Shown here one piece after another: positions 22,641-38,263 of a DNA stretch of 64,000 nt; the first letter of the stretch is position 1, and every line of letters starts with the position of its first letter. A program made the translations under genes and the position numbers. The notes beneath the pieces were generated by a model, which saw nothing but the letters and a program-made list of their open reading frames with translations, was not told the DNA's origin and ran no database searches. The DNA comes from Corynebacterium lubricantis DSM 45231 (lineage in GTDB: Bacteria; Actinomycetota; Actinomycetes; Mycobacteriales; Mycobacteriaceae). The DNA lies in assembly GCF_000379425.1 (NCBI RefSeq), contig NZ_KB902182.1, forward strand, positions 124,001-188,000, given 5' to 3'.

Positions 22641-24065
22641 GTGAGTTCTTCTGCCCCATCGCCAAAACAAACCGCTGCTAATGCGGGGACAACTGTCGTC
22701 CGCCGACCCGGGCTGAAGCACCGCCACATCAGCTTCATTGCGCTCGGCTCCGCCATCGGCACCGGCCTGTTCTACGGCTCCGCCGGCGCCATCCAGGCCG
22801 CCGGCCCGTCCGTGCTCTTGGTCTACCTGCTGGCCGGCGCCGTGGTCTACTTCATGCTGCGTGCTCTCGGCGAGATGGCAGTCCACCACCCCGTGCGCGG
22901 TTCCTTTGCCGTATACACCCGCGAGCACTTAGGTGGCTGGGGCGGCTACATCACCGGCTGGATGTTCGCCTTCGAGATGATGATCGTCTGTCTTGCCGAC
23001 CTCACCGCCATCGGCATCTACATGAAGTTCTGGTTCCCTGAATCCCCTGCGTGGATCTGGATTGCCTCGGCTCTGCTCATCATCGGCGCGGCGAACTTGG
23101 CCTCGGTGCGGTGGTTCGGCGAGATGGAATTCTGGTTCACTATTATTAAGGTCACCGCAGTCGTGGCCATGATCATCGGTGGCGCCGCCATTCTTGCCTT
23201 CGGCCTGGGCACCGACTCCTCCCAGACTGGTTTCGACAACCTGTGGAACGACGGCGGCTTCTTCCCCAACGGCATCGAGGGCATGATTGCGTCCTTCATT
23301 CTCGTGCTCTTCGCCTTCGGTGGCACCGAGATCATCGGTGTGGCAGGTTCCGAAGCCGAGGACCCAGACCGCTCTATCCCGCAGGCTGTGAACACCGTGC
23401 CGGTGCGCATTCTGTTGTTCTACGTGTTGGCTATCCTGGTCATCCTGGCTCTGAACCCTTGGCGCACGATTACCGGCGAAGAGTCTCCTTTCGTGCAGAT
23501 CTTCTCCACCCTCGGAGTGAACTGGGCTGCAGGCCTGCTCAACTTCGTGGTTATCACTGCTGCTCTCTCAGCTATCAACGCCGACATCTTCGGAACCGGC
23601 CGCGTCCTCCACGGCCTAGCCAAGGAGAAGTTGGCGCCGAAGTTCATGGCCACCACCGTCCGCGACGTCCCAGTCATGACCATCGTTTCCCTCTTGATCG
23701 TGCTGGTCATCGGTGTCATCCTCAACGCGATGTACCCGGACATCTTCACCACCATCGCAGCCCTGGCCACCTTTGCCACCGTCTACGTCTGGCTGATGAT
23801 CCTGCTTGCCCAGATCGCCTCCCGCAGGCACATGAGCGCCGAAGAAGCCAAGTCCCTGAAGTTCCCCGTCCCCTTCTGGCCTTATGGCCAGTGGTTCGCG
23901 GTAATCTTCATCCTGTTCACCTTCGTGATTATGGTCTGGCTCCCCCAGTACCACACGGCGCTGCTTGTCGGCGTAGCCTTCCTGGCAATCATGACGGTCA
24001 TGTACTTCGTCACCGGCCGCCCGCAAGCGATTGCCGAACACGATGTCGAACACGAAGTGAAATAG
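22641..24065 (+). CDS. Amino-acid permease (APC superfamily, AAT family)
   Basis: 474-residue transporter with 12 hydrophobic segments, of the AroP/ProY/CycA type. The family stretch HISFIALGSAIGTGLFYGSA (about 31-50) and GEMAVHHPVRGSFAVYTREH are clear. It should import an amino acid by proton symport; aromatic, proline or alanine specificity cannot be told apart by eye. The start is the GTG at 22641 after AGAAGGG. It is the last core gene before the island; the MutT remnant follows 50 bp later. Confidence 0.9.
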   Translation: MSSSAPSPKQTAANAGTTVVRRPGLKHRHISFIALGSAIGTGLFYGSAGAIQAAGPSVLLVYLLAGAVVYFMLRALGEMAVHHPVRGSFAVYTREHLGGWGGYITGWMFAFEMMIVCLADLTAIGIYMKFWFPESPAWIWIASALLIIGAANLASVRWFGEMEFWFTIIKVTAVVAMIIGGAAILAFGLGTDSSQTGFDNLWNDGGFFPNGIEGMIASFILVLFAFGGTEIIGVAGSEAEDPDRSIPQAVNTVPVRILLFYVLAILVILALNPWRTITGEESPFVQIFSTLGVNWAAGLLNFVVITAALSAINADIFGTGRVLHGLAKEKLAPKFMATTVRDVPVMTIVSLLIVLVIGVILNAMYPDIFTTIAALATFATVYVWLMILLAQIASRRHMSAEEAKSLKFPVPFWPYGQWFAVIFILFTFVIMVWLPQYHTALLVGVAFLAIMTVMYFVTGRPQAIAEHDVEHEVK

Positions 24066-24270: not shown

Positions 24271-26991
24271 GTGAGTCACGAAAACCTAGATGAAGAAATC
24301 ATCGTTGATTATCTAGAAGAATTTCAGGATGCTGCTCGCCTAGGTAAAGACTTAGAAGCGGCCGCAAGAAAGTGGTCTCGGCGCGTGCCTCATGAGGCGA
24401 GCGAAATCGAGGAGGCGCTTAATCGCGTCATCAAAGCACATACACCAGTAGATTCGGGCCGCCGAGACGCTGCTTACCGGCGCAAGGATCACAACTGGTA
24501 CCGGCCCTTCCCCGATCGAGATCACTTTTGGCCAGCATTCAAGAAAGTTATCGAAAAGGACCTTGGCCCTGCTGTCAAGGACATTGATGAATCCTCCACG
24601 CAAGTTCTCAATGGGTTCAGGCCAAGCACTGAAGAACAAAACTCCAAGGGACTCGTTCTTGGCTATGTTCAAAGTGGTAAAACCACCAATTTCATGTCCG
24701 TAATTGCAAAAGCCGCCGACGCAGGGTTTCGACTGATTATTGTCTTAACAGGCATCACTGAAAACCTCCGTCAACAAACCCAGGATCGACTTGAAGACCA
24801 ACTAATCAATCCTCAGGCACACCTTTGGCTGCGTCTTACAGACCATGACAATGACTTTTCGGGGGATATTAATGGAGCTCGCCTTGGCAACGTAAATGAC
24901 CGTTTTATTGCCGTGGTCAAGAAGAATCCGCATCGCCTTCGCCGTCTGAATGAGTGGCTAATTGATAATGCGGACGTCGCAGAGAACTGCCCGATTTTGG
25001 TTATTGACGACGAAGCCGATCAAGCGAGCATTAACGTCTCTAATCACTCGAAAGCTGAAAGATCTGCAATCAATCGTCAAATTGCACAGCTCTTGGATCG
25101 GAAACGAACCGTCTACACCGCGTACACTGCAACCCCGTTCGCAAATATTTTGATCGACCCGAACGAGGGTGATGATCTCTATCCACGCGATTTCATCGTC
25201 ACTCTGCCCGAGCCCAAGGGTTACTTCGGCTCTAGAGCATTGTTCGGAAGAGCACCGCTTAATGGTGAGTCAAGAGACGAGCTCGAGTATGAACTCGACG
25301 GGTTCGATATGATCCGTACGATACCTGAAGACGAAGTCGATGGTATTCGTCCGGGTAAAGGCGACGAAAAAGGAAAACCCGTGGTCGGCGGAGATCAACT
25401 CAAGTCGTCCATTCGCTGGTTTATTCTTGCTTCAGCCGCACGCCGTGCGCGCGGGCAAGAAAACAAGCATTCATCAATGCTCGTACACACTTCTATGCTT
25501 ACGGCTGATCATGAGGACCTTCGATTCCAAGTTGAAGTTGAGCTAAGCAAAATTCGGAAGGAGTATGAAGACGGGTCCGATCGTTCGGAATGGGAGGCTC
25601 AGTGGGTCGATGAAACAGCCCGAGTTCCAGCGGAACAATTTGGACTGACGCCGCTATCTTTCAGCGAAATCGAGCCCAGGATCACTGAAACACTGCAAGC
25701 AGTCCAAGTGGTTGTCGACAACGGCGCTTCTGCAAATCGATTGAACTATGACAATGGTGTCGCCACTGTCATTGCAATTGGCGGAAATACGCTTTCACGT
25801 GGCTTGACTCTGGAAGGACTTGTCTCATCCTATTTCGTCCGTCGAGCTTCTGCATATGACACCTTGCTTCAAATGGGCCGCTGGTTTGGCTTCCGCAATG
25901 GTTACCAAGACCTACCCCGAATCTGGATGCCAGATGAGCTTAGAAGGTGGTTTTACGATCTTGCGACGATCGAAGCCGAGCTGCGTGAAACTCTCAACGT
26001 CTACATGCAGTATGGAGAAAGTCCCCTCGATATCCAGGCACATATTCGTCTACATCCCGATATGCAGGTCACTAGCAAGGCAAAGATGCAAGACCAACGC
26101 CCTGCTTCAATGAGCTTCAGTGAAAATAAGGAACAAACAATCCAATTCAAGGAAAAGGATCGGGTTTGGCTCACTAGAAATCTGGATGCTGCGAAAGATC
26201 TTGTCTCTGGAATCCACAAACGAGGAATCCCCGAGGAAGTTGGTCTCTTTCAAAACCCAGTGTTTAGAAAAGTACCAAATCAGCTCATTCAGGATTTCCT
26301 TGATGCCTACCAAATTCACGAGCAGCCACGTCTTGGTCAAGACAATGCACGATTGCTTAAAAGCTACATAAGGAAAGAAGCAACGGCAGGGCGGATGCTC
26401 TACTGGAATGTTTCGTTCGTTACCCAGGAGCAATTCCAAGATAATGAGGAGGTCGATCTTGGCCTTAACCACCCGATTCGTACGCTCACTCGTACAAAGC
26501 TAAAAACCTTCCCAGGCGCGGACATCAGCATCAAGGCATTAGTGTCTGCAGAGGACCGACTCAACGACGTCGTCTTTCAATCTGAAGCGGATCGGACTGC
26601 TTTCCGGAGCTACGTTAGGAAACAGGTCAAAGAAAATGACAAAGAAACCGAAGTTCGCAAACTGCATGAGAATAACGTCGGACCTGGTATCGGACATCTA
26701 GCGATTTATCCGATCCGCAAAGACTCGAAACCTAGGAATTGGGACAGCCTTTCAGACGAGAAAAAGTTGGGACTGCAACGTGTACCTCTCGATGCTGCTG
26801 AAACGGTGATTGGTATTGGCATGTTCTTCCCGAAGTCGACAAGTGCAGAATCTCGCGTCGACTATGTCTCTGCGCCAGAAGCCAATGAAGAAATTCGCGA
26901 GGCCTATCTCCGCTACGACGAAGAAGTTGACGATATCAACGAGAACGATGAACGGGTGCTGGAGGGTTCTGTTGATGACAACACGCAGTAG
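24271..26991 (+). CDS. Z1-domain helicase-like ATPase of an R-M type defence system
   Basis: 906-residue protein with a superfamily-II-like ATPase and Z1 domain. Walker A is in LGYVQSGKTTNF (about 131-142) followed by LTGITENLRQQT; the DExD-type Walker B is LVIDDEADQASIN (near 247); YTAYTATPFANIL is motif III-like; the Z1 signature is GGNTLSRGLTLEGL followed by LQMGRWFGFR. It is the first gene of the island operon, starting with a GTG after AAAGGAG. Iyer et al. (2008) predicted that Z1 ATPases act as the translocase in restriction systems with MORC-like ATPases. Codon use is AT-richer than in the flanks. Confidence 0.88.
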   Translation: MSHENLDEEIIVDYLEEFQDAARLGKDLEAAARKWSRRVPHEASEIEEALNRVIKAHTPVDSGRRDAAYRRKDHNWYRPFPDRDHFWPAFKKVIEKDLGPAVKDIDESSTQVLNGFRPSTEEQNSKGLVLGYVQSGKTTNFMSVIAKAADAGFRLIIVLTGITENLRQQTQDRLEDQLINPQAHLWLRLTDHDNDFSGDINGARLGNVNDRFIAVVKKNPHRLRRLNEWLIDNADVAENCPILVIDDEADQASINVSNHSKAERSAINRQIAQLLDRKRTVYTAYTATPFANILIDPNEGDDLYPRDFIVTLPEPKGYFGSRALFGRAPLNGESRDELEYELDGFDMIRTIPEDEVDGIRPGKGDEKGKPVVGGDQLKSSIRWFILASAARRARGQENKHSSMLVHTSMLTADHEDLRFQVEVELSKIRKEYEDGSDRSEWEAQWVDETARVPAEQFGLTPLSFSEIEPRITETLQAVQVVVDNGASANRLNYDNGVATVIAIGGNTLSRGLTLEGLVSSYFVRRASAYDTLLQMGRWFGFRNGYQDLPRIWMPDELRRWFYDLATIEAELRETLNVYMQYGESPLDIQAHIRLHPDMQVTSKAKMQDQRPASMSFSENKEQTIQFKEKDRVWLTRNLDAAKDLVSGIHKRGIPEEVGLFQNPVFRKVPNQLIQDFLDAYQIHEQPRLGQDNARLLKSYIRKEATAGRMLYWNVSFVTQEQFQDNEEVDLGLNHPIRTLTRTKLKTFPGADISIKALVSAEDRLNDVVFQSEADRTAFRSYVRKQVKENDKETEVRKLHENNVGPGIGHLAIYPIRKDSKPRNWDSLSDEKKLGLQRVPLDAAETVIGIGMFFPKSTSAESRVDYVSAPEANEEIREAYLRYDEEVDDINENDERVLEGSVDDNTQ

Positions 26992-27949
26992 CGAAATTTA
27001 CGCTGCACTCGGCCTTCAGATCGCGTCCCAAGGATTCGAAAATGACTATGGAATCCGCCGCGAACTCGAATTTGAGAATTCGAATGGGTCGGTTGAAGCC
27101 TTCTTTGATGCGCCCGGATCAATGGGTCTTTTCGTACCTTTTGGTTCTGATGAAAAGTTGCGTTTTACCGCAGATCTACAAAGTCGATACATAACGCTAA
27201 GTAAGATTCCGCGCAATGGTCGCGTAACAGCACAGCTGCGACTTGAGGACAGCTCGTTAAGCGAAGTATTTTTTATCTTTGTAGACACCTTCTTGAAAGA
27301 ATTCGAAGAGGAACCAGAAAATGCAGTAAGTCTCCTATCTAACCAGCTAAAACAGTGGAGATCATTGTTCACTCCCAACTCAGTGTCCACCATGTCCGAA
27401 GTACAACAACTGGGCTTGATCTGCGAGCTTCAAGTTTTAGAACAGCTTTTGGAGACGGACGGTGAAAGTGCCTTTTACCGTTGGACAGGTCCAGACGCGT
27501 CCAAGCATGATTTCCAATTGGAAGATAGGGACATCGAGTGCAAAGCAACAAGCATTCAAAAAGGGCTTCAAATATCGATCAACGGTTTACACCAGCTCCA
27601 TCCTGAGCCAAACAGAAAAATGATACTCGCCGTACGGAAATACGAAAAGACGCCAAACGGCGACATCTCGCTTTCCGAATTGGTAAACCGCCTAGCCAAT
27701 CGCATTGAGATCCCAACTGATGAATTCCTAAAAACACTTCAGAAGATTGGCTATTCCCTAATAGAAAAGACTGCGAATAATGAGACGCGATACTCAAATA
27801 TTGGTTCGTTCGTGTTTGAAGTCGATGACCGCTTTCCGCGTCTCAACACCGATGGATTTCCAGAAAGAATCGTTCGAGTCAATTACGAGGTTGACTTGCA
27901 TCCTGCTGGTGAAATTCCTGGTTACAGATCGGAAGGTTCCCTCTCTTGA
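26975..27949 (+). CDS. PD-(D/E)XK nuclease-like protein (DUF4420 type)
   Basis: 324-residue protein. The central core GLICELQVLEQLLE, then KHDFQLEDRDIECKATS has the nuclease pattern: a Glu in the first helix, Asp in HDF and the ExK of IECKAT near residue 190. This matches the putative PD-(D/E)XK family found beside Z1 proteins. It is the likely DNA-cutting subunit. The ATG at 26975 follows GGAGGG at 8 nt and overlaps the Z1 gene by 17 bp, so translation is coupled. Confidence 0.8.
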   Translation: MTTRSSEIYAALGLQIASQGFENDYGIRRELEFENSNGSVEAFFDAPGSMGLFVPFGSDEKLRFTADLQSRYITLSKIPRNGRVTAQLRLEDSSLSEVFFIFVDTFLKEFEEEPENAVSLLSNQLKQWRSLFTPNSVSTMSEVQQLGLICELQVLEQLLETDGESAFYRWTGPDASKHDFQLEDRDIECKATSIQKGLQISINGLHQLHPEPNRKMILAVRKYEKTPNGDISLSELVNRLANRIEIPTDEFLKTLQKIGYSLIEKTANNETRYSNIGSFVFEVDDRFPRLNTDGFPERIVRVNYEVDLHPAGEIPGYRSEGSLS

Positions 27950-28935
27950 TTAAGAATGAAATCTTCCACCATGCTGAAATGCTGCTAGAGTCTGGTGGAA
28001 CTTACGGCAATTCCGCTACGTCGGCACTCGGAAGACCAAGCCTTGACAGCTGGGATCTCTTCACTCGTGAGACGCTCCAAAATAGTTGGGACGCAAGAGA
28101 CAGAACCTCTACGGATGACGGAGTAACTTTCTCAATCGACTACGCCGAACTACGTGGACACAGAGCTGATACTCTGAGGGAATTTTTTGATTCTCGGATG
28201 GCTGGTGTTCCAAAACTCGCAGCTCTTCTCGATGATCCAGCTCGACCAAATATCCCGGTACTCAGAATTTGCGACACTGGAACCTCCGGATTACAAGGAC
28301 CAACCTCTGCTGCCCAACAAACGGCTGGGCGTAATGACTTCGCGTCGTTCGTCAGAAATATCGGCCGCCCTTCCGATAAAGAAATGCGTGGAGGAACCTA
28401 CGGTTTCGGTAAAGGTGTCTTTTTCGACATGAGCGACGTTGATACCATTTTGGTTTATACGAGAACTGTCGATGAGAGGGGCTTGCCAAGCAATCGGTTT
28501 ATTGCAATGGCCAACAGCGAGAGTTTTAATCAGCATGAAAAGCTTTTTACAGGTCGCCACTGGTGGGGCGTTAAGTCTTTTGGCCGTACTGGTAATGAGT
28601 TCGCTGAGCCGATCACTGGTATCGAGGCAGATAGCTTGGCTCGGGCACTCCAGATGGATGAATATTTCACTGAAGAACGGCCAACTGGCACAACCATTAC
28701 GTTATTGGCACCGCGCACAAACGATGGCGCTAATGACGGTGCTATTGATGATGTTCTGCGTACTATTGCGAATGCCTTAACGAAGTGGGCTTGGCCGCAT
28801 ATGACGGTTAAGACGAATCATCAAGATGAGATAGATTTTTCAGTCACGAATAACGGCGTTGAAGTTGAAATTCCTGATCCCAACAAGGATCCAATTCTGA
28901 GGCCTTTTGTGAGAGCTTACAAAACAAGTATCTGA
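27946..28935 (+). pseudogene. GHKL-type ATPase gene, 5' part (split by IS insertion)
   Basis: The first 329 codons of a gene interrupted at 28932/28933. It starts at a TTG that overlaps the previous stop by 4 bp. Its N-terminus has a divergent Bergerat-fold ATP site: N-box RETLQNSWDARD (about 41-52, with E, N and D in place), G1-like CDTGTSGLQG (109-118) and G2 GGTYGFGKGVFF (149-160). The reading frame ends in the IS (...RAYKTSI, then stop). Removing the IS and one ATC copy rejoins it in frame to 30305, giving a protein of 661 residues. It is different from the second GHKL protein at 33069. Probably a paraMORC-type ATPase subunit. Confidence 0.75.
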
Positions 28936-28985
28936 GCTTTCCCGGGTTTGATGGAGGGTGGGAAGACACGGAAGGATAGAGCACC

Positions 28986-29303
28986 ATGCCCGCCCCAAGG
29001 AAGTACTCCGATGAGGTCAAAGCCCGCGCAGTCCGGCTGACCATCGACGCCCTGGCCGACCCGGCCACCAAGCACGGCGCCTACAAACGCATCGCCGCCC
29101 AGCTCGATCTCAACACCGAAACCCTGCGCTCCTGGGTACGTCAGGCCCAGATCGATACCGGTGAGCGGCCCGGGACAACCACCTCGGAATCAGAACGGAT
29201 CACCGAGCTGGAAAAGGAAGTCCGCGAGCTGCGCCGAGCCAACGAGATCTTGAAGTCTGCATCGGCTTTCTTCGCAGCGGAGCTCGACCGCCCCTCCCGG
29301 TAG
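28986..29303 (+). CDS. IS3-family transposase OrfA
   Basis: 105-residue protein with an N-terminal helix-turn-helix (YSDEVKARAVRLTID and AAQLDLNTETLRSWVRQAQ) that binds the IS ends, and a C-terminal leucine zipper (ITELEKEVRELRRANEILK) for multimerisation. It ends just after the region where a -1 ribosomal frameshift would give the OrfAB fusion. Confidence 0.92.
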   Translation: MPAPRKYSDEVKARAVRLTIDALADPATKHGAYKRIAAQLDLNTETLRSWVRQAQIDTGERPGTTTSESERITELEKEVRELRRANEILKSASAFFAAELDRPSR

Positions 29304-30250
29304 TCATCGACTACATCTCTTCCCACAAGGACCGCTTCGGTGTCGAGCCGATCTGCCGGCAGCTGCACGCCGCCGGCATCAAGATCGCACCGAGTACCTA
29401 CTACGCCCGCCTCAACCACACCCCCTCGCACAGGGAGAAACGAGACCGCGTGCTCATCAACTACCTCATCTGGCTGTTCGAGAAGAATTTCTACGTGTAC
29501 GGCGCGAGGAAACTGCATGCCGTGATCAACCAGCCCGAGCACCTCGACGCCCACGACCAGGGCCCGGTCGCCCGCTGTACCGTCGAACGGCTGATGAAGA
29601 TTGCACAGCTGAAAGGGCTGGTCAGGAGGAAGAACCCGAACACCACCTACTCCGCGCCGAAGGAGTCCTGTCCGCTGGATCTGGTGGACCGGAAGTTCAG
29701 CGCCGCGCATCCCAATAGCCTCTGGGTCGCTGATATTACCTACGTACGGACCCATGCCGGCTGGGTGTACACCGCGTTCGTGACCGATGTCTACTCCCGC
29801 AAGATCGTCGGCTGGAAGATCAGCGACAGCCTCTACGCTGAACTGGCGGTGGACGCCTTGTCGATGGCTATCAGCGCCCGGCAACGGGCCGGGCAGTCAG
29901 TGGCGGAGCTTGTACACCACTCGGATCGCGGGGTGCAGTATCGCTCCATTGCCTACGCCACGGCCCTGGAAGACAACGAGATCGTTGCCTCGGTCGGATC
30001 CCGTGGGGATTCCTACGACAATGCTCTGGCTGAGGCGCTCAACAGCCTCTACAAAGGCGAGGTGATCCATAACTCTGCGTGGCATCCGGATGCCTGGCAG
30101 GGCATCGATGATGTGGAGAAAGCCACCCTGGAGTGGGTCGGCTGGTACAACGCCGAGCGAGTTCACTCGAAGCTGGGTAACCGCAGCCCGAATGATTTCG
30201 AGGCGTTGTACTGGACTGATCACCAACCCGCCGCCGTTTCTGCGGCGTGA
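29300..30250 (+). CDS. IS3-family transposase OrfB (DDE catalytic part)
   Basis: The frame is open from before the orfA stop and the conserved sequence begins VVIDYISSHKDRFGVEPICR near 29300. The first internal ATG is at 29450, so expression is expected by -1 frameshifting from orfA; TTTCTTC at 29267-29273 is a candidate slip site. An HTH_21-type region is followed by the rve domain with the DDE triad: Asp in LWVADITYVRTHAGW, Asp in HHSDRGVQY and Glu in DNALAEALNSLYKGEV. The protein looks intact. Confidence 0.88.
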   Translation, partial: VVIDYISSHKDRFGVEPICRQLHAAGIKIAPSTYYARLNHTPSHREKRDRVLINYLIWLFEKNFYVYGARKLHAVINQPEHLDAHDQGPVARCTVERLMKIAQLKGLVRRKNPNTTYSAPKESCPLDLVDRKFSAAHPNSLWVADITYVRTHAGWVYTAFVTDVYSRKIVGWKISDSLYAELAVDALSMAISARQRAGQSVAELVHHSDRGVQYRSIAYATALEDNEIVASVGSRGDSYDNALAEALNSLYKGEVIHNSAWHPDAWQGIDDVEKATLEWVGWYNAERVHSKLGNRSPNDFEALYWTDHQPAAVSAA

Positions 30251-30304
30251 CCTGAAACCAAGAAAAACAGACTAACTACTCTCTACAAAACCCGGGGCTT
30301 GACA

Positions 30305-31306
30305 ATCACTAAGCCTGAACACCTAGATGCTTCAGAGTTCATTACCGATTTTCAGGTAGAAGGCAAACGAAAATGGGTCGATATAACGTCTCGACGCCCA
30401 ATTGAATACCTAGGACGCCTATCTCTTATGAGAACTGGCGAGGACCAAATCCAACAGACTTCTGTTTTCGATACACCAATGAATCAGCACATTGCGTTGA
30501 TGAGATCTCCACGAATGGTTGTAACGTATTGGGCCGGTCCGCGTCCTAGTAACAATGAAGCTTACTCAGGTGTGTTCCTGGCCGCAGAGCACCTTGACTC
30601 TGTCTTCGCTGGCAGCGAACCTCCGGCACACGACGAATGGAACCCTCAAACCGTAAACTTGAAAGACCCAAAGTTTAGGAATCCTAAAACTGATAAGCCG
30701 AGAGCTACTAATCCGGTTCGTATCGCGCTAAACCGTATGAAGGAACTCCTCAGCGCTTCAATGGACCAAACAGTCTTGGGGGAATCGGCTGAAGAAGTAT
30801 CCACACTTACCACGATCTCAAACGAACTGGGAACGATATTTTCGGGTGCTACTGGGAAAAGTACACGAGTCGTTTCGCCAAAGGGCACGAAGGGTGCGAA
30901 CAGAACAAAATCAAAGCGAAATGGAGTTACATCCTCCATTGAGTTGGAGTCCTTGGTCTCGACGCCGCACGGACCAATCAGTCTCTTCAAGGTTGAAGTG
31001 AGCTGTTCTCCAAAGGCTCTCGAGGAGAATGTAGCAATTCAGGTAAATACAGCAGTCATCGTTGATGGTAAACGAAAGACTGAATCCGAAGATGGACTCA
31101 AGATGCCCACTCACCTCGGTTGGATTCAACCTCAGTCCATTCCTAAGTCTTGGGAAGATCTGGTGAACGCTCCACCTGACGAAGCTGCGTTAATTAAGTA
31201 TATGCGCGCCAGTCATTGGGAAGGTGTTTATGCGGTTCTTCAGCCCCAAGACACTGCGATTTCTGCAGAAGTAGTTGCTTTCCAAAGCGAAAGTGGGGAA
31301 AACTGA
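30305..31306 (+). pseudogene. GHKL-type ATPase gene, 3' part (split by IS insertion)
   Basis: The C-terminal 332 codons of the gene begun at 27946. The frame (ITKPEHLDASEFITDFQVEG) continues exactly from the upstream part through the ATC duplication. A TTG at 30299 inside the IS end could start translation of a fragment, but without the ATP-binding part. I recognise no domain in this half. Its stop overlaps the next start (TGATG), so downstream translation may have depended on it. Confidence 0.75.
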
Positions 31307-32232
31307 TGGCAAGCACTAGCCTTGGGTATCTCGTTCCTTCGGGTAATGCAATTTCTCTCGATGACTATGATTTGGTGATTGATGGGAAATCAGTAGTTCA
31401 CTCAGATGAAAATGCTCAAATTACTTGGACAGATAGGTCTGACCTCCAAGTTAGTTTTATCCTGACGCTTGATTTGAATGACGTGTTAAGTCAGTGTGGT
31501 TTTAACCCAATTAATTCCGCAAATCTCGGTCAGTTGGCCGCCACAGTCAATTGGAAATCCACAGGGTCAGGGCTGCATGGGGCATCTCCCCTACAGAGCT
31601 TGAGCGACGGCGAAAATGTTCTCTCGTTTACACTCGATAGCACCAAATTGGGTGGAGAATTAATCATTAAGCCGAGTATCGTACTTGAAAATAACCCCGA
31701 TCCTGATTTATATCCATTGGCCCCACGCAGAACAGGATCAAGGCTTTGGAGTTCGTCTATTTCCGTGCGCCTCGAAGGAACAGGCTCCCAATTCCCCACT
31801 ACTGCATTGGATTTCGCAAAAAACTATATCGAACCGCCGGATGCACTATGGCAAGTTCGAATTCCGGGCGATCTTAGCGGGCATTTCTCCTCAAGTGTGA
31901 GGCTTTATCTCAACACTGGGCACCCCCGCATCACCGACTATTTAAAAGATCCATCTGCAAAAGACCAGCTAGAATTGCACAATTTCGTTCGTGCAGATGT
32001 AATTATTCAGCTATTGACTTTTGCGTTCAATTCAGACCTTGAGCAGCTAAAATTGGATGCAGAGGAACCTGGAACGCTAGCTGAAGCACTTTTGGAAATA
32101 CATTCAACCTATTTTCCGCAGACTACTATCGAGTCGAATAAGGACAACTTCTTGACCGACCCTGGATTCCTTTCCTCTGCGGTGATTGCGAAGACCTTCA
32201 GTCGGCGGTCTGGTAAGGAATCGAGGAAATAG
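31306..32232 (+). CDS. Unrecognised island protein, 308 residues
   Basis: No family recognised. It looks beta-rich in its first 200 residues (MASTSLGYLVPSGNAISLDD, then a run of Ser/Thr-rich strands) and helical at the end. There is no signal peptide, membrane segment or catalytic motif I can name. The ATG overlaps the previous stop (TGATG), so it belongs to the operon and is translationally coupled to the split GHKL gene. Its conserved position would make it a structural or target-recognition subunit; that is inference only. Confidence 0.75.
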   Translation: MASTSLGYLVPSGNAISLDDYDLVIDGKSVVHSDENAQITWTDRSDLQVSFILTLDLNDVLSQCGFNPINSANLGQLAATVNWKSTGSGLHGASPLQSLSDGENVLSFTLDSTKLGGELIIKPSIVLENNPDPDLYPLAPRRTGSRLWSSSISVRLEGTGSQFPTTALDFAKNYIEPPDALWQVRIPGDLSGHFSSSVRLYLNTGHPRITDYLKDPSAKDQLELHNFVRADVIIQLLTFAFNSDLEQLKLDAEEPGTLAEALLEIHSTYFPQTTIESNKDNFLTDPGFLSSAVIAKTFSRRSGKESRK

Positions 32233-32281
32233 AAAATTGGAAAGCTTCCTTTCTCATTATCGATTAGATCGAGGAAATGCC

Positions 32282-33013
32282 ATGTCGATTGTCTCGGACA
32301 TGTGCGACTTAACCGTGGAACAATGTGGGGGTTTAGCTTCAACTCACAACCAGATGGCATATCCGCCACCGGTCGCCGCAAAAATTCCTACTACAGCTCA
32401 GCTCCAAAACCTTCGAAATGGCATCATCGATATCGCCTCTGGGTATGGATTTCCAGTCCGGAAATCCATCAAAAGCAGCACCATGTCTGACTTTGATGTA
32501 GAACTTGGCAATTTCTTACTCGCAGAGCTATACATCACCCCTGCTGAAGCTGGCGTAGAAGAAGTCTGGAGTTTTTTGTCATTAGTCTTAGTTCCTGACG
32601 TTGTCGCTTGGAGATTTCCAAACAAAAGTAAGAACCCCGAGTTTGAGCGCTGGATTGGCCGACCTAGAAATGTCTTGAGAAAGGCTTGGTGGAGAGCTTA
32701 TGTACTCGGCCCTGCACTCAACACCAAGATTGGCGAAGACGAAGGCGTCAACATTATGGAACGTCCGACATTTGGGATGAATCCTTTGTTGGCACGCATA
32801 ATTGTTGAAATTCATATCAGCAAGTCAAATGAATTTGAGTTCGCAAAGTCAGAGGTTCTAAGACGAGTAATGGTTCAACTAGGCAAGTTTGTTTCATTTG
32901 TTGACCTCGATTGTCTTCCTGAAGAACAATTGCGTACCCTGGTCGAAGAGGCCTACGATATTGCACTTCAGCCTTTTATAGATGAACTTGAAAGCGAAAG
33001 AGTCTCAGTTTAA
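32282..33013 (+). CDS. Unrecognised island protein, 243 residues
   Basis: No family recognised with confidence. It is a mostly helical protein with a central Trp/Arg-rich stretch (EEVWSFLSLVLVPDVVAWRF, then WIGRPRNVLRKAWWRAYVLG) that could bind DNA or a partner. The ATG at 32282 follows GAGGA at 6 nt; an in-frame TTG at 32237, also behind a GAGGA, would add 15 residues and shorten the gap to the previous gene to 4 bp. AT-rich codon use is like that of its neighbours. Confidence 0.7.
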   Translation: MSIVSDMCDLTVEQCGGLASTHNQMAYPPPVAAKIPTTAQLQNLRNGIIDIASGYGFPVRKSIKSSTMSDFDVELGNFLLAELYITPAEAGVEEVWSFLSLVLVPDVVAWRFPNKSKNPEFERWIGRPRNVLRKAWWRAYVLGPALNTKIGEDEGVNIMERPTFGMNPLLARIIVEIHISKSNEFEFAKSEVLRRVMVQLGKFVSFVDLDCLPEEQLRTLVEEAYDIALQPFIDELESERVSV

Positions 33014-33068
33014 TCGATAATCTGTGCCTTCCCACATAACTCAGCCTTAAAGGATCAATGCACTCCAA

Positions 33069-34355
33069 ATGACCAATCGACTCTCCGTAGCGCCGTCCGC
33101 TCGACGCCTGACCAACTCACTTCGTGATATTGGCTATAGCTTCGAATCCGCCATCGCAGATCTAATCGATAATTCGATCGCCGCTCACGCGACGACAGTT
33201 GATATTGAGATCGTGTTTAAAGGCCGAAACTCGTATATCTCACTGACCGATAACGGTGAAGGTATGAGCTCAGAAACCCTCAATGAGGCAATGCGTTTTG
33301 GTTCAAGGCGGTCATACGACATTGGTGAACTAGGACGATACGGTCTTGGACTAAAGACGGCCTCTTTGTCTCAGTGCCGGCGAATTGAGGTTGTTACATC
33401 TCGCGAGAACGAGCCGATCCAAGCGCGTGCTCTCGATTTAAACTTCATCGAAGTAGTCGACGACTGGCTAATTACCGACATCTCAGACGAACCCGAAATC
33501 ATTCAGCACGCGGGGACCTATCTTCCTCACACTGGTACTTCGGTTTTCTGGAAATCTCTGGATCGTCTATTGCCTGCCAAAGCACCTGAAGGTGGCTGGG
33601 CTCGACGACGAATTGAAAGCCTTCCGGTCAAACTCGAAAGTTATCTGGCAATGGTTTTTCATCGATTTCTGTCTGGCGAAACCGAAAACAACCTCGTTAT
33701 TACTATCAATGGCAAGCCTGTAGATGCTTGGGATCCATTCGCACGAAGCGAACTCGCAACCCAAGAGCTCGGATCCGATGAGTTCGAAATCGAACATAAG
33801 TCAGGAGTCGGGAAAGTTCAGCTGCGACGATATTTGCTCCCTACCCGAGACAACTTCTCCACTTCTCAAGCTTACGATTCACTGTCCGGCATTGATAAGT
33901 GGAACAAGCAGCAGGGGCTTTACATTTATCGGTCCAATCGACTAGTTCAATGGAGCGGTTGGGCAGGAATCCGGACAATTGATGAGCACACTAAGTACGC
34001 ACGCGCTTCCCTTGATTTCGATACGGACCTCGACAGCGCCTTCAACATCAATGTTGCAAAGATGCGAGTCACCGTACCGAGTGAACTTCGGAAAATGCTC
34101 AGCCGACCGATTAATGAGCTTTGTATCCAAGCCGATGCTGAATACCGCCGGAGCGAGCTCGCCAAAACCTCTAGCGGCGAACACGACCAAGACTCTTCTC
34201 CTAGCTTCGGAGGTCGCAAGGAGGACGGTGCAACTATCGGACTCACCCTCCGGGCGGCGGCTGCCCGGACAGGTCATCTAGAAGCACTCGACGAAATGAT
34301 GAAACTGATCAAGTCCGAGATCCCCGACTTAGCTGAGCATTTAGGTTTCGACTAA
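33069..34355 (+). CDS. MORC-like GHKL ATPase
   Basis: 428-residue ATPase with a clear Bergerat fold. The N-box is ADLIDNSIAAHA (30-41), G1 is DNGEGMS (61-67), and RFGSRRS then GELGRYGLGLKTASLSQ (about 86-102) is the G2 lid. The usual catalytic Glu of the N-box is Asp31. An S5-like region follows (YIYRSNRLVQWSGW, then RASLDFDTDLDSAFNINVAK). This is the prokaryotic MORC architecture, predicted to change DNA structure in restriction systems. It is the last operon gene and ends 3 bp inside the convergent methyltransferase gene. Confidence 0.88.
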   Translation: MTNRLSVAPSARRLTNSLRDIGYSFESAIADLIDNSIAAHATTVDIEIVFKGRNSYISLTDNGEGMSSETLNEAMRFGSRRSYDIGELGRYGLGLKTASLSQCRRIEVVTSRENEPIQARALDLNFIEVVDDWLITDISDEPEIIQHAGTYLPHTGTSVFWKSLDRLLPAKAPEGGWARRRIESLPVKLESYLAMVFHRFLSGETENNLVITINGKPVDAWDPFARSELATQELGSDEFEIEHKSGVGKVQLRRYLLPTRDNFSTSQAYDSLSGIDKWNKQQGLYIYRSNRLVQWSGWAGIRTIDEHTKYARASLDFDTDLDSAFNINVAKMRVTVPSELRKMLSRPINELCIQADAEYRRSELAKTSSGEHDQDSSPSFGGRKEDGATIGLTLRAAAARTGHLEALDEMMKLIKSEIPDLAEHLGFD

Positions 34356-36328
34356 AACAAGGTTTCAGGTTCAGGCGGTTGCTCAGCATCACCTCCGCGT
34401 CGCTGAGCAAAATCACACATCTGCGACAGGGGGCAGACGCCACAGTACGGCTTTTCGGAAACGCACAGCTGCCGCGCCACTTCAAAAAGCGCGAGGTGGC
34501 CTTCTCGAGAATTCTTATCAAGTCCCAAAAGTTTCCCGACACTAATCCGGCCATTCGATTGCTTATTTCGACTTTCCGTATCCACCCCGAGAAAGCGGCT
34601 CGTAACTCGGAGGACTCCCTTTGCGACAATTACAGGTTCTTCGCTTCGGCTGTCAGTACCGTCCGAAATGGGCGCTGAAAGCTCAAGAGTCCTAACCAAG
34701 ACATCGTTTAGCACTGGGAGCTTCGCTCGATCAATGTGAGGTTCCCACAGCGCCTTAGGATTTTCTCGCATCTGCTCGACGAGGGTCTCAAACTGGGAAA
34801 AACGGATCTTGAACCTCTCACCAGCGAAGACTGAACGCAGAGTAGCAATGGTCTGATCACTCGGCAATGCTCCAATCTCAGGTTCCTCGAGATTATCGAT
34901 CAGTTGCCACAAGAAACGCGTTTCAGTCCAAGACGAGCGCAAAAGAAAAATTTCAGCTACCACGATCTTCCAGCGAGACTTTGTTCGTAGCCAAGGTTGA
35001 AGTAACCCGCTATCTGGTTGCTGCCTATACCAATCAGCTAACGATTCGACTACGTCTTTAGAAACATAATGTTTGGTCTCGTTCCGCTCCCATGCATTTA
35101 GGATGCCATTTCCAAGAGCCTCTCCAAGGCGCACTGGGACCGCATTTCCGATTTGTTTGAATGCGGCGCTCGGTGGACCTGAGAAGCGAAAATCGTCTGG
35201 AAACGACTGTAGACGCGCTGCTTCACGAACGGTAATAGTTCGTGCCTGACGAGGGTGAATAAAGCTATAGCCATCTTTCGCAATATGGGCTGTAATAGTC
35301 CTTGACAGGTCATTCTCATCTAATCTTTTGTACTTATCGACGAAAATGTCGGACCGGTACCGCCGAAGATGCTCCGGAAGGTCAGAATATCGCGTGGCAG
35401 CCGTCATTTGCTCAAATGCCTGACGGTCATCCTCCCTTACAGGACGAGTAATGTGGTCATAGATTCGATCTTTATCCTCGTCTCGGACATTGGCGCGCAT
35501 GGAAGTTTGATACTCCGTAAGTGGCCCGGAGTAATCCCAAAAACCATCCCCCCCACCATCGGGTCGATCGCCACCTTCAACCTCTGGCAAGTCTCCGATT
35601 GCATTCCAAACAGAAACCTTTTGGGATACTTCCTTAGGCCATTCGAACTTCACATTGTCGCGAAGGGCTACAAGAATAAAGCGCTGGCGGAACTGGGGAA
35701 CCCCATATCGCCAAGTATCAATAACTTTGCATTCGACTGAGTACCCAATCTGCTCAAGCTCTGTAACCATGCTTCGGAGGATGAACATCTCATCGTCCAG
35801 AGCAATATCTGGAACATTCTCCATGATTACAGCCTTCGGGCTAGCAAGCTGTACTACTTCAAGATATGCCCGCCAAAGGTTTCTCCGCTGATCATCTGGA
35901 TCCCGTTCGCCATTCTCTACAAGGTGACGGATACCAGACCTACCGGCTTTAGAGAATGGCTGGCAAGGTGGGCCCCCGGCCAACACCTCAATGCCGGCTT
36001 CCTTCATTAGGTCCGCTACGCGCGCAACATTGTCAGAAGTCGACAAATCCCAGTCAACTGACATTCCTGGAAAGCGCGCGGCATGTGTTTCGAGCGCATA
36101 TTGGTAATGGTCGATTCCGAGCACTACTTCAATGCCTGCATTAACAAGCCCTTGGCTTAATCCACCTGCACCCGAGAACAAGTCTGCGCCAAGGATCGCA
36201 CCTTGACTCCGCCTTTCTTCCGCGTACTCAATCAATTCCTGTTCCGTCGAACAGTGATTCGGGTGCAGTGACAGAGTTACATAAGGTCCGCGAACTTGCT
36301 TAACTGCGTACTGATCATGCATCGTCAC
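34352..36328 (-). CDS. Cytosine-5 DNA methyltransferase fused to an endonuclease-III-like Fe-S domain
   Basis: 658-residue fusion. Residues 45-410 are a complete m5C methyltransferase: motif I DLFSGAGGLSQGL, catalytic GGPPCQPFS (Cys122), ENV (170-172), QFRQR (212-216), motif X QIGNAVP. Residues 425-645 resemble an HhH-GPD DNA glycosylase: WKIVVAEIFLLRSSWTET at 453-470 and a C-x6-C-x2-C-x5-C cluster (622, 629, 632, 638) as in endonuclease III. The catalytic Lys and Asp positions of that fold look substituted. It would mark the host DNA for the convergent nuclease operon. The GTG at 36328 follows AGGG at 6 nt; an ATG is at 36322. Confidence 0.9.
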   Translation of the reverse strand: MTMHDQYAVKQVRGPYVTLSLHPNHCSTEQELIEYAEERRSQGAILGADLFSGAGGLSQGLVNAGIEVVLGIDHYQYALETHAARFPGMSVDWDLSTSDNVARVADLMKEAGIEVLAGGPPCQPFSKAGRSGIRHLVENGERDPDDQRRNLWRAYLEVVQLASPKAVIMENVPDIALDDEMFILRSMVTELEQIGYSVECKVIDTWRYGVPQFRQRFILVALRDNVKFEWPKEVSQKVSVWNAIGDLPEVEGGDRPDGGGDGFWDYSGPLTEYQTSMRANVRDEDKDRIYDHITRPVREDDRQAFEQMTAATRYSDLPEHLRRYRSDIFVDKYKRLDENDLSRTITAHIAKDGYSFIHPRQARTITVREAARLQSFPDDFRFSGPPSAAFKQIGNAVPVRLGEALGNGILNAWERNETKHYVSKDVVESLADWYRQQPDSGLLQPWLRTKSRWKIVVAEIFLLRSSWTETRFLWQLIDNLEEPEIGALPSDQTIATLRSVFAGERFKIRFSQFETLVEQMRENPKALWEPHIDRAKLPVLNDVLVRTLELSAPISDGTDSRSEEPVIVAKGVLRVTSRFLGVDTESRNKQSNGRISVGKLLGLDKNSREGHLALFEVARQLCVSEKPYCGVCPLSQMCDFAQRRGGDAEQPPEPETLF

Positions 36329-36434: not shown

Positions 36435-37595
36435 CTAAACCCACACCTCGCTGACCTGCGCGTACTCCCCCACTTCGTCCATGAAGGATGTATCGTGGCA
36501 GGTCATCACCAGCGCTGCCCCGCCGCTTAAGCAGCGGGCCAGCATCTCGTGGGCCCGTGTGCGGCCGCAGGTGTCTAGGCCGACGTCGGGCTCGTCGAAA
36601 AGCATTAGGGTGCGGTTCTGCACATAAACGGACGCCATTTGCGCCAGCCGCAGGTTGGAGGCAGACAGATCCAAAGGGTGCTCCTCGGGGTCGAAGTCCA
36701 ACTCCGAGATCAGCCCAGCATCCCCGATAAAGCCCGAGATCGTCGTATCCACCACTTGGTCGGCGGCGTGCTGGAAAGCCAAAGAAGTAGATACCGACAC
36801 CCCGTCGTTCCCGTCGAGGCCAGCCATAGCGCGCAACAGTGTGGTCTTGCCGGAACCGTTGGCACCGCGCAGCCACACCACGGAAGAAGGCGAAACCACC
36901 AAAGGAAGCGGCCCGACAGCAAAGTCGGGCTGGGTGGAGGCCTTGAACTGCCACCACCGCCGACTAGCACCGCCGCGGGTAGCGCTGACAGAACCCAGGT
37001 CGATCGGAGCAGCAATAGAAGCAGCAACCGGAGCAGGCAGGCTCACTTCCTGGGGAGCCGGTACGTGGAGGGACAGTGAATCGTCGCGAAGCGATAAAAC
37101 GCTCGAGCCCAACTCACGGTGCACCCGATTGCCCAGCACGACGATTTCGCTAGGCATCTCGCGGAACAGCGAGACGATAGCGCGGGAGGATTCCGGATCG
37201 AGGCCGGCGAAGGGGTTGTCTAGGACGAAGATCTGCGGTTCGAGGACGGCGACCGTGGCAATGGCGAGACGGCGTGTTTGGCCGCCGGAGAGTTGGGTGG
37301 GGTGCCTGTCGGCGAGGTCGGCAAGTCCGCACATCTCAAGTGTGCGCGTACACCGGCGCAGCATCTCCTCGCGCTCGACGCCGCGCTGCTCGAGACCGGT
37401 GGCGACTTCCTCGATAACCGTGTCGCGGAGCAGCGTAACGTGCGCCTCTGCGTCTTGGGTGACCACGCCAATATTGGGCAGGGTTTCGTGGAGCTCGCGG
37501 GCCATGCGGCTGAGTCCCTGTCCAGAATCGGCGACGACTTGGACGGTCTTGTTGCGCGAGGATGCCATCGCGGCGCGCAGCGGTGTCAGATCCAT
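36435..37595 (-). CDS. ECF transporter ATPase component, two fused domains
   Basis: 386-residue protein with two ABC ATPase halves in one chain, the energising part of an ECF-type vitamin/nutrient importer. The first half has a degenerate Walker A (ADSGQGLS, no Lys) but an intact LSGGQ and Walker B IFVLDNPFAGLD. The second half has an intact Walker A (GANGSGKTT) and Walker B (LMLFDEPDVGLD) but a degraded signature (LSASN). The ATG at 37595 overlaps the T component gene by 10 bp; a GTG at 37613 is the alternative. Last gene of the ECF operon. Confidence 0.85.
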   Translation of the reverse strand: MDLTPLRAAMASSRNKTVQVVADSGQGLSRMARELHETLPNIGVVTQDAEAHVTLLRDTVIEEVATGLEQRGVEREEMLRRCTRTLEMCGLADLADRHPTQLSGGQTRRLAIATVAVLEPQIFVLDNPFAGLDPESSRAIVSLFREMPSEIVVLGNRVHRELGSSVLSLRDDSLSLHVPAPQEVSLPAPVAASIAAPIDLGSVSATRGGASRRWWQFKASTQPDFAVGPLPLVVSPSSVVWLRGANGSGKTTLLRAMAGLDGNDGVSVSTSLAFQHAADQVVDTTISGFIGDAGLISELDFDPEEHPLDLSASNLRLAQMASVYVQNRTLMLFDEPDVGLDTCGRTRAHEMLARCLSGGAALVMTCHDTSFMDEVGEYAQVSEVWV

Positions 37596-38263
37596 ATGAC
37601 CACCGCCAAACACACAATCGGCACGGTGTAGCGCAGGACGCGCTGCGCGGGGCTGTCGGCGACGGGGACCAGGACGGTGCGTTTACCCTGGATATCGTAG
37701 CCTGCGGTCTCGAGCGCTTGGCCGCGGGCGGCGCCTTGGGATAACACGCTGGTCATCACGGGCAGCGCCAGGTGAGGGATGACGGTGCGCAAGTTGATCT
37801 TGCGCCCGACGAGCGCGTTGGCGTCGCGGGCGCGCTGCACCGCTAGGCGGCCCTGGGGCAGAAACTGCAGCGCAGAGCCGACAATATAGGCGATACGGTT
37901 ACCCAGCGGGCTGACCTGGAGGGCCTTGACCAGCTCGGGGATGGTCACGAAGGTCATGGCGGCGAGCAGGCAGGACATCAGTGCTGAAAACCGGAGAGTC
38001 AGCGCGCCTGCAAGTGCCAGCCCGTCGGAGGTGATCAAGGGCGCGATCTGATTGTCGCCATAAGGTGCATGAACGAGAACCATTGACAGCCCCAGCGGAA
38101 TGGCCAGCACGAGCACCGCGAGCGGGACCGATAGGTTGCGCGTTTTCACGACAGCCAATCCAAGCGCGAGCAGGATCAGGATGGCCGAAGCTACCGGTAA
38201 ATTCAGGCCAAGCGCCAAAATCCATCCGGACATCCCGATCGCCAGAGCCGTCAACGGGTTCAT
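37586..38263 (-). CDS. ECF transporter T component (EcfT)
   Basis: 225-residue membrane protein, the scaffold that couples the ATPases to the substrate-binding subunit. It has five or so hydrophobic segments and the two coupling-helix motifs with small-residue patterns: ARDANALVGR (about 143-152) and QGAARGQALETAGYD (about 176-190; the family form is ARA/ARG-x). It directly abuts the S component gene and overlaps the ATPase gene. Confidence 0.87.
   Translation of the reverse strand: MNPLTALAIGMSGWILALGLNLPVASAILILLALGLAVVKTRNLSVPLAVLVLAIPLGLSMVLVHAPYGDNQIAPLITSDGLALAGALTLRFSALMSCLLAAMTFVTIPELVKALQVSPLGNRIAYIVGSALQFLPQGRLAVQRARDANALVGRKINLRTVIPHLALPVMTSVLSQGAARGQALETAGYDIQGKRTVLVPVADSPAQRVLRYTVPIVCLAVVIWI

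What the first reader, a model, noticed from the sequence alone, without database searches (positions are those of the whole stretch)
24271..36328. Accessory MORC/paraMORC-Z1 restriction-modification-like island
Seven collinear functions sit together on visibly AT-richer DNA: Z1 ATPase, PD-(D/E)XK-like nuclease, GHKL ATPase 1, two unknown proteins, MORC-like GHKL ATPase 2 and a convergent cytosine methyltransferase. The sequence shows the motifs and tight overlaps (17 bp, 4 bp, TGATG). Iyer, Abhiman and Aravind (2008) predicted R-M systems with MORC-like ATPases and SF-II helicases. That this exact set works as one defence system, with two GHKL ATPases and two new subunits, is inference. A modern defence nomenclature for it is not known to me.
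Basis: partly seen in the sequence, partly recalled or inferred. Interest (0 to 1): 0.88.

Follow-up and report, generated by a model that had tools for sequence, protein, structure and literature searches.

The report
Transposon-broken modular anti-phage restriction operon
This is a widespread but untested bacterial DNA-restriction system whose genes really do travel together; in this bacterium a jumping gene has cut one of its motor genes in two, so the copy here is probably switched off.

Summary
In 80 of 80 relatives both halves lie in one ORF. Z1, DUF4420, GHKL1, an unnamed protein X and DUF6339 form a collinear core in 75 of 80 loci, mostly actinobacterial; 74 have a C5 methyltransferase nearby and 52 a Vsr gene. 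This fits the untested 'Type I' defence system predicted by Miller et al. 2022, built on Iyer et al. 2008. The window copy adds a cassette: an MzaB-like GHKL ATPase and a methyltransferase with a MutY-like iron-sulphur tail lacking the catalytic Asp; the two are present or absent together in all 107 loci counted (two overlapping sets). In 8 of 8 other species examined the same chromosomal interval holds other restriction genes. New here: DUF6339-methyltransferase fusions (18 of 80), and GHKL1-X-DUF6339 triads without Z1 beside DISARM genes (5 of 11), suggesting a portable recognition module. Best reading: methylation-guarded, ATP-driven restriction, probably off in this strain. New variant of a predicted kind.

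The parts
24271..26991 (+). Z1-domain SF2-type ATPase (MzaC-like), 906 aa; Walker A-like GYVQSGKTTNF, DDEAD, DTLLQMGRWFG motif
   Evidence: PF10593 1.9e-66; NCBIfam MzaC 360 bits, cut-off 1500; differs at 1 of 137 columns conserved in 27 relatives
26975..27949 (+). DUF4420 PD-(D/E)XK nuclease (MzaD-like), 324 aa
   Evidence: PF14390 2.6e-51; D179, E188, K190 conserved
27946..28932 (+). GHKL ATPase 1 (paraMORC2-type, PDC-M33A-like), N-terminal half with the ATP-binding motifs
   Evidence: PDC-M33A 1.7e-13; one ORF with the C-half in relatives
28933..30304 (+). IS3-family insertion element, 1372 bp; ends TGAGCTTTCCCGGG / CCCGGGGCTTGACA
   Evidence: rve 2.2e-21, HTH_Tnp_1 1.3e-13; inverted repeats 19 nt, 79%; an 83%-identical full-length copy in another species has the same two ends
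28930..28932 (.). target-site duplication ATC, left copy (right copy 30305-30307)
   Evidence: sequence
30299..31306 (+). GHKL ATPase 1, C-terminal half with the ExxxH motif (SEPPAHDEW)
   Evidence: aligns to the columns after the insertion point; PDC-M33A profile 324-390, E 0.0039
31306..32232 (+). protein X, 308 aa: Ig-like beta sandwich plus helical C-terminus
   Evidence: no Pfam, PADLOC or NCBIfam match at E up to 1; in 79 of 80 loci; AlphaFold model pLDDT 85.3, pTM 0.56
32237..33013 (+). DUF6339 protein (weakly PDC-M33C-like); start codon chosen by comparison with relatives
   Evidence: PF19866 1.4e-5; in 79 of 80 loci, in one ORF with a C5 methyltransferase in 18
33069..34355 (+). GHKL ATPase 2, MzaB-like, MORC/MutL type, 428 aa
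   Evidence: HATPase_c_3 8.2e-31; NCBIfam MzaB 228 bits, cut-off 850; best solved structure MORC3 5.4e-5
34352..36328 (-). C5 cytosine methyltransferase with C-terminal MutY/MIG-like HhH and iron-sulphur domain
   Evidence: PF00145 9.4e-58; C-terminal alignment vs MutY 2.6e-14; catalytic Asp absent in 14 of 14

Best explanation
It is a horizontally acquired, methylation-guarded, ATP-driven restriction system, inserted at a chromosomal interval that repeatedly receives restriction genes and now interrupted by an IS3 element. Proposed mechanism: (1) the C5 methyltransferase marks host sites (inferred from the family). (2) GHKL1, X and DUF6339 form a recognition complex that reads the methylation state of a site; GHKL1 closes as an ATP-gated clamp on unmethylated DNA, and DUF6339 is the contact to the methyltransferase or its target site (inferred from fusions and GHKL biology). 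(3) The Z1 ATPase, recruited by the clamp, translocates and delivers the DUF4420 nuclease, which cuts (inferred by analogy with the Z1 protein of CglI, and from conserved motifs). (4) The MzaB-like GHKL2 and the methyltransferase with its inactive glycosylase-like tail are an exchangeable second-specificity cassette that can accompany the core (co-occurrence shown, role inferred). (5) In this strain GHKL1 is cut between its ATP-binding half and its ExxxH half, so restriction is probably off while methylation may persist.
For: Collinear core in 75 of 80 loci; the 5 misses are two cut contigs (L129, L164), two where DUF4420 was not detected (L100, L134) and one where overlapping ORF bounds upset the order test (L118). 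C5 methyltransferase near in 74 of 80, Vsr in 52 of 80 (5 of 5 Vsr ORFs checked match PF03852). DUF6339-methyltransferase single ORFs in 18 of 80 (2 of 2 checked match both Pfam families). MzaB (>500 bits) and iron-sulphur methyltransferase (>700 bits): both in 15, neither in 65, one alone in 0 of 80; 13, 14 and 0 of 27 in the second, overlapping set; 6 changes on the GHKL1 tree. Restriction interval: 8 of 8 other species examined carry PADLOC restriction or methyltransferase genes between the same permease and ABC genes. Other window genes keep nearly all conserved columns. CglI precedent: a Z1-domain ATPase of a C5 R-M system, active on non-methylated DNA at a rate its authors find consistent with translocation (PMC4267653, passages).
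Against: I found no experiment on the Z1/DUF4420/GHKL1/X/DUF6339 set. X and DUF6339 have no informative fold match. No data on methylation, target site or cleavage. The fusions are all from Streptomyces. The window has no Vsr hit although 13 of 15 cassette-bearing loci do. The IS split may not abolish function if both halves are made and reassemble.
Confidence: 0.62

Rival explanations
1. The island is an intact, active restriction-modification system in this strain with two GHKL ATPases.
For: All genes except GHKL1 are open and keep nearly all conserved residues.
Against: GHKL1, one ORF in 80 of 80 relatives, is split by a complete IS3 element between the ATP-binding motifs and the ExxxH motif.
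Confidence: 0.12
2. It is a DNA-repair system for deaminated 5-methylcytosine rather than a defence: MutL-like ATPases, Vsr and a MutY/MIG-like domain act with a helicase and nuclease.
For: Vsr in 52 of 80 loci; the methyltransferase tail resembles MIG T/G glycosylase 1kea (1.1e-11) and MutY; Iyer 2008 notes the MutL analogy.
Against: The tail lacks the catalytic Asp in 14 of 14; patchy presence (A6 profile in 12 of 396 phylum genomes; Z1 in 32 of 242 genus genomes); restriction genes in the same interval in 8 of 8 species examined. Vsr is ordinary next to C5 methyltransferases (recalled).
Confidence: 0.1
3. It is a modification-dependent (type IV-like) restriction system that attacks modified phage DNA, the methyltransferase being a neighbour or a decoy.
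For: Modification-dependent and GHKL-nuclease phage defences exist (PMC12137116, passages); type IV genes occupy the same interval in 4 of 8 other species.
Against: A C5 methyltransferase is near the core in 74 of 80 loci and in one ORF with DUF6339 in 18, so it looks like part of the system.
Confidence: 0.16

Closest known systems
'Type I' putative defence system of Miller et al. 2022 (PMC9523054; section 11 and passages with the Fig. 5 legend seen)
   Same: Z1 protein of about 925 aa, PD-(D/E)XK protein, C5 methyltransferase plus three further genes; association with DNA-repair endonucleases; wide bacterial spread
   Different: Window adds an MzaB-like GHKL ATPase with an iron-sulphur-tailed methyltransferase and has no Vsr hit; GHKL1 is IS-broken. 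I could not see their gene table, so identity of the three further genes is inferred
MZA (mzaABCDE; Gao et al. 2020, recalled; NCBIfam and PADLOC models)
   Same: MzaB, MzaC and MzaD homologues
   Different: Scores far below the equivalog cut-offs; no AIPR (MzaE) and no sigma factor (MzaA) among the island genes; GHKL1, X and DUF6339 instead
PADLOC candidate PDC-M33
   Same: GHKL1 and, weakly, DUF6339 match PDC-M33A and PDC-M33C models; X is related by profile comparison to the middle gene of such loci
   Different: Z1-DUF4420 engine added; PADLOC gives no function, and X matches no PADLOC model
paraMORC2 / Z1 helicase R-M neighbourhoods (Iyer et al. 2008, PMC2292703, passages)
   Same: GHKL with ExxxH motif, SF2 helicase with DThhQXuRhFG motif, RE-fold nuclease, C5 methyltransferase, Vsr
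   Different: X and DUF6339 are not named in the passages seen
CglI / NgoAVII R-M (PMC4267653, passages)
   Same: Z1-domain ATPase plus C5 methyltransferase; CglI is from Corynebacterium
   Different: PLD-B3 nuclease instead of PD-(D/E)XK; three genes, no GHKL ATPase among them
DISARM
   Same: GHKL1-X-DUF6339 triads occur beside DrmA and/or DrmB genes in other genomes
   Different: No DrmA or DrmB in the window island

Membership tests
Type I system of Miller et al. 2022 | Z1 protein, PD-(D/E)XK DUF4420 protein and C5 methyltransferase together | tested here: met
   (the paper prints DUF4220; taken as DUF4420)
Type I system of Miller et al. 2022 | three specific further genes | tested here: inconclusive
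   three conserved further genes found (GHKL1, X, DUF6339), but their table was not readable here
Type I system of Miller et al. 2022 | associated DNA-repair endonuclease | tested here: inconclusive
   Vsr in 52 of 80 relatives; none among window HMM hits
MZA | MzaB, MzaC, MzaD over equivalog cut-offs | tested here: not met
   228/850, 360/1500, 86/420 bits
MZA | AIPR protein (MzaE) and sigma factor (MzaA) | tested here: not met
   no AIPR or sigma-factor family among the island's system genes; the rest of the genome not searched
paraMORC2 (Iyer 2008) | GHKL ATP-binding motifs | tested here: met
   RETLQNSWDAR, DTGTSGLQGP, GGTYGFGKG; motif names recalled
paraMORC2 (Iyer 2008) | conserved ExxxH in the C-terminal part of the S5 domain | tested here: met
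   E428 and H432 at least 90% in A1; E441, P442, H445 invariant in 8 of 8 in A6; the S5 fold itself was not tested
PDC-M33 | matches to the PADLOC models | tested here: inconclusive
   A 1.7e-13, C 0.0021, nothing for X; hhalign of GHKL1, X and DUF6339 to PDC-M33-type triads 3.9e-61, 1.6e-7, 5.7e-15
DISARM | DrmA helicase and DrmB | tested here: not met
restriction-modification (function) | restriction of unmodified DNA and protection by the methyltransferase | not testable with these tools
   needs experiment
active A/G or T/G glycosylase (methyltransferase tail) | catalytic Asp | tested here: not met
   no Asp at the aligned place in 14 of 14 (placed by the alignment)
IS3 family | orfA/orfB transposase, terminal inverted repeats, 3-bp duplication | tested here: met

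The most novel reading that the evidence does not exclude
GHKL1 (paraMORC2)-X-DUF6339 is a portable self/non-self licensing complex, coupled to a C5 methyltransferase through DUF6339, that plugs into unrelated restriction engines: Z1 plus a PD-(D/E)XK nuclease here, and DISARM DrmA/DrmB elsewhere, including haloarchaeal plasmids. A clamp that reads methylation would then be the shared, previously unrecognised front end of two restriction classes.
Probability: 0.3. Interest if true: 0.75.

Novelty: new variant of a known kind. Interest (0 to 1): 0.52.

Why it matters
The set was predicted in 2008 and 2022 but I found no test of it, and two of its subunits have no described role. The fusions, the paired cassette and the DISARM-linked triads turn a gene list into testable roles: which part reads methylation and which part cuts. 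If the triad is a shared front end, it would link two restriction classes thought to be separate and give a bacterial model for MORC/MutL-type clamps acting on DNA methylation.

Tried and rejected
Structure: X gave only a common Ig-like sandwich (Foldseek best 2.5e-4, TMq 0.29; VIA Z at most 8.2, which the tool calls ordinary) and DUF6339 nothing useful. The GHKL1 profile and the Z1 protein had no PDB sequence match. The idea that the methyltransferase tail replaces Vsr as an active T/G glycosylase was dropped: no catalytic Asp in 14 of 14, and 13 of 15 cassette loci have both the tail and Vsr.

Mobility: no near DNA match of the island or of the IS in the plasmid collection; distant protein relatives of GHKL1 in 6 plasmid records. 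Pfam DUF6339 proved too narrow for a census (4 of 396), so profile A6 was used (12 of 396).

Limits and dropped rows: the 80 loci are the best 80 of 260 relatives, chosen by similarity to GHKL1, so the counts are not a random sample. The 27 loci are those of 40 fetched with GHKL1N over 250 bits; L057 (split GHKL1) and the PDC-M33-type loci L067-L071 fall below that, and the set overlaps the 80. The tree left out eleven duplicate loci and four cut or poor rows (93 of 97 kept), used a laxer methyltransferase cut (600 bits), and is a quick tree with long branches. DISARM link: of 11 Z1-less loci with the triad or most of it, 5 have DISARM genes (DrmA and DrmB in L070, L180, L185; DrmB plus an annotated helicase in L196; DrmA at the stretch's end in L068) and 6 do not in the stretch held (L067, L071, L183, L188, L191, L195); X was not detected in L188 and L191; L192-L194 were set aside as cut or fragmentary. 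The flank search found the ABC gene in 45 and the permease in 68 of 121 genomes; only the eight pairs under 10 kb apart were examined for other genes; G350 (16.5 kb) was not, and in most genomes the two genes are not close.

Papers: DUF6339, PF19866 and PDC-M33 were in 0 papers of the held library; one search for a methyltransferase-glycosylase fusion gave nothing relevant; the ARMADA preprint PMC12458937 (outline, passages) has no MORC or GHKL. Nine paper searches were made, in open-licence PMC papers only, so 'new' means not found there.
Full report
What is there. The window lies in a 2.94 Mb genome (G000:C2:124001-188000). Its genus is Corynebacterium by inference: a same-genus genome (G425) and C. 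pollutisoli (L091) share a contig of equal length. Between 24271 and 36328 lie Z1 (PF10593), DUF4420 (PF14390), GHKL1, X, DUF6339 (PF19866), an MzaB-like GHKL ATPase and a convergent C5 methyltransferase. The system without the IS has GC 0.485; the flanks have 0.586 and 0.593, and none of 95 overlapping 2-kb windows outside falls below 0.53.

GHKL1 is broken. A 1372-bp IS3-family element (28933-30304) with orfA and orfB, inverted ends and an ATC duplication on both sides sits in the gene. A relative of the element in another genome of the genus (83% identical, aligned 1-1372) has the same two ends, which fixes the borders, although its own flanks show no clear duplication. In this genome it is the only full copy found. 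The N-half (27946-28932) holds the ATP-binding motifs; the C-half (30299-31306) holds the ExxxH motif. Both match a single ORF in 80 of 80 loci of the genome-contig scan; trimmed lengths are mostly 607-668 aa. The remaining genes look intact: at columns at least 95% conserved in relatives the window differs at 1 of 137 (Z1, 27 relatives), 1 of 19 (DUF4420, 27), 0 of 7 (X, 26), 0 of 8 (DUF6339, 26), 6 of 121 (MzaB, 13) and 5 of 195 (methyltransferase, 13). In one other locus of the genus (L057) GHKL1 is also split, there by a frame change.

Conservation. PDC-M33A matched 16 of 298 genomes of the order, this one included, and Z1 matched 32 of 242 of the genus. Of 20 Z1 loci of the genus fetched, 18 carry the core, one of them (L054) cut before DUF6339. 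A scan of genome contigs with the GHKL1 alignment gave 260 relatives; the best 80 were kept, mostly Actinomycetota with some Chloroflexota, Pseudomonadota, one Planctomycetota and one Prochlorococcus. In these 80, Z1 is found in 79, DUF4420 in 77, X in 79, DUF6339 in 79, all five collinear in 75, any C5 methyltransferase in 74, Vsr in 52. Five Vsr ORFs checked all match PF03852. In 27 other fetched loci, which partly repeat these genomes, 26 are collinear. The samples were chosen by similarity to GHKL1, so they show co-occurrence, not frequency in nature.

The variable part. The MzaB-like ATPase and the long methyltransferase are present or absent together: 15 both, 65 neither, 0 one alone in the 80; 13, 14 and 0 in the 27. 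On a quick GHKL1 tree of 93 rows the pair needs 6 changes, so it seems to have been gained or lost repeatedly. Whether the pair also occurs without the core was not tested. The methyltransferase carries a C-terminal domain aligned over its length to MutY (2.6e-14) and MIG (5.7e-13), with the four cysteines of the iron-sulphur loop in register in 13 of 14 and no catalytic Asp in 14 of 14. Of the 15 cassette loci 13 have Vsr as well; the window has none. In 18 of 80 loci, all Streptomyces, DUF6339 and a C5 methyltransferase are one ORF; two checked ORFs match both Pfam families. This is the best hint that DUF6339 works with the modification step.

A portable triad. GHKL1, X and DUF6339 are related to the three genes of PDC-M33-type loci (hhalign E 3.9e-61, 1.6e-7, 5.7e-15). 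In L070 the triad follows DrmA (657 bits) and DrmB (238 bits) on the same strand, with no Z1. L185 has DrmA (697 bits) and DrmB (262 bits) divergent from the triad. Two haloarchaeal plasmids have it too: L180 with DrmA (1095 bits) and DrmB (1552 bits), L196 with DrmB (432 bits) and an annotated helicase. L068 has DrmA (500 bits) where the stretch ends. Six other Z1-less loci (L067, L071, L183, L188, L191, L195) show no DISARM genes in the stretch held, and L079 and L184 have both Z1 and DISARM genes nearby. So the link is suggestive, not a rule; plain clustering in defence islands could also give it. A Synechococcus plasmid has two triads, one with Z1 and DUF4420, one with a methyltransferase.

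Place. The flanking amino-acid permease (22641-24065) and ABC gene (36435-37613) lie 4.6-7.0 kb apart in eight other genomes of the genus. All eight intervals hold a PADLOC restriction or methyltransferase gene: type II methyltransferases in four, with a type II restriction enzyme in one of them, and type IV enzymes in four. The core lies between the same two genes in G468 (L057) and, within 34 kb, in G373. A 2017 study describes a comparable swap in C. diphtheriae BH8 beside srmB (PMC5379612, passage).

How it works, in my reading. Shown: gene order, intact motifs, pairing, fusions, the IS split. From established families: C5 methylation; SF2-type ATPase with the Z1 motif; PD-(D/E)XK nuclease; GHKL ATP-gated clamps (recalled). 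The Z1 protein of CglI is a DNA-dependent ATPase of an R-M system with a rate its authors find consistent with translocation (PMC4267653, passages). VcSduA joins a GHKL domain and a PD-(D/E)XK nuclease in one anti-phage protein, and its authors hypothesise that the ATPase controls the nuclease (PMC12137116, passages). Inferred: the triad licenses the Z1/DUF4420 engine on unmethylated DNA; the cassette adds a second specificity; this strain may methylate but not restrict.

Compared with the known. Iyer et al. 2008 (PMC2292703, passages) predicted this class: an SF2 helicase with DThhQXuRhFG (the window Z1 has DTLLQMGRWFG), RE-fold nuclease, C5 methyltransferase, Vsr, and paraMORC2 with ExxxH. 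Miller et al. 2022 (PMC9523054, section 11) described the Type I set as a putative defence system. MZA shares three protein families but not its scores, AIPR or sigma factor. I therefore file the window as a broken copy of the predicted Type I kind, in a variant with an MzaB cassette. It is not a new category.

Noticed in passing
window 34352-35086 (minus strand), and 13 relatives: The C5 methyltransferase ends in a full-length MutY/MIG-like HhH iron-sulphur domain without the catalytic Asp, an apparent pseudo-glycosylase attached to a methyltransferase.
   Followed up: partly
L102, L106, L108 and 15 other Streptomyces loci: DUF6339 and a C5 methyltransferase are a single ORF; 17 of 18 stretches hold a second methyltransferase.
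   Followed up: partly
L070, L180, L185, L196, L068: GHKL-X-DUF6339 triads beside DISARM DrmA and/or DrmB genes and without Z1.
   Followed up: partly
window 22641-24065 and 36435-37613; L198-L205: A permease-ABC interval in Corynebacterium is occupied by other restriction genes in each of the eight other genomes examined.
   Followed up: yes
L181, L197 (Rhizobiaceae plasmids): Z1-GHKL1-X-DUF6339 without a DUF4420 or methyltransferase hit in the stretch held; a DEAD helicase, an EcoRII-N-like gene and an ATP-binding protein follow (an HNH gene too in L197).
   Followed up: no
L110 14586-20100: A second Z1-DUF4420-MzaB operon of the classical MZA-like sort lies beside the core system in Micromonospora trifolii.
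   Followed up: no
L057 12184-14071: GHKL1 is split by a frame change in another genome of the genus; whether real or a sequencing error is not known.
   Followed up: no
window 30299-30304: The right end of the IS carries TTGACA, a -35-like box pointing into the downstream genes; it might keep X, DUF6339 and MzaB expressed.
   Followed up: no
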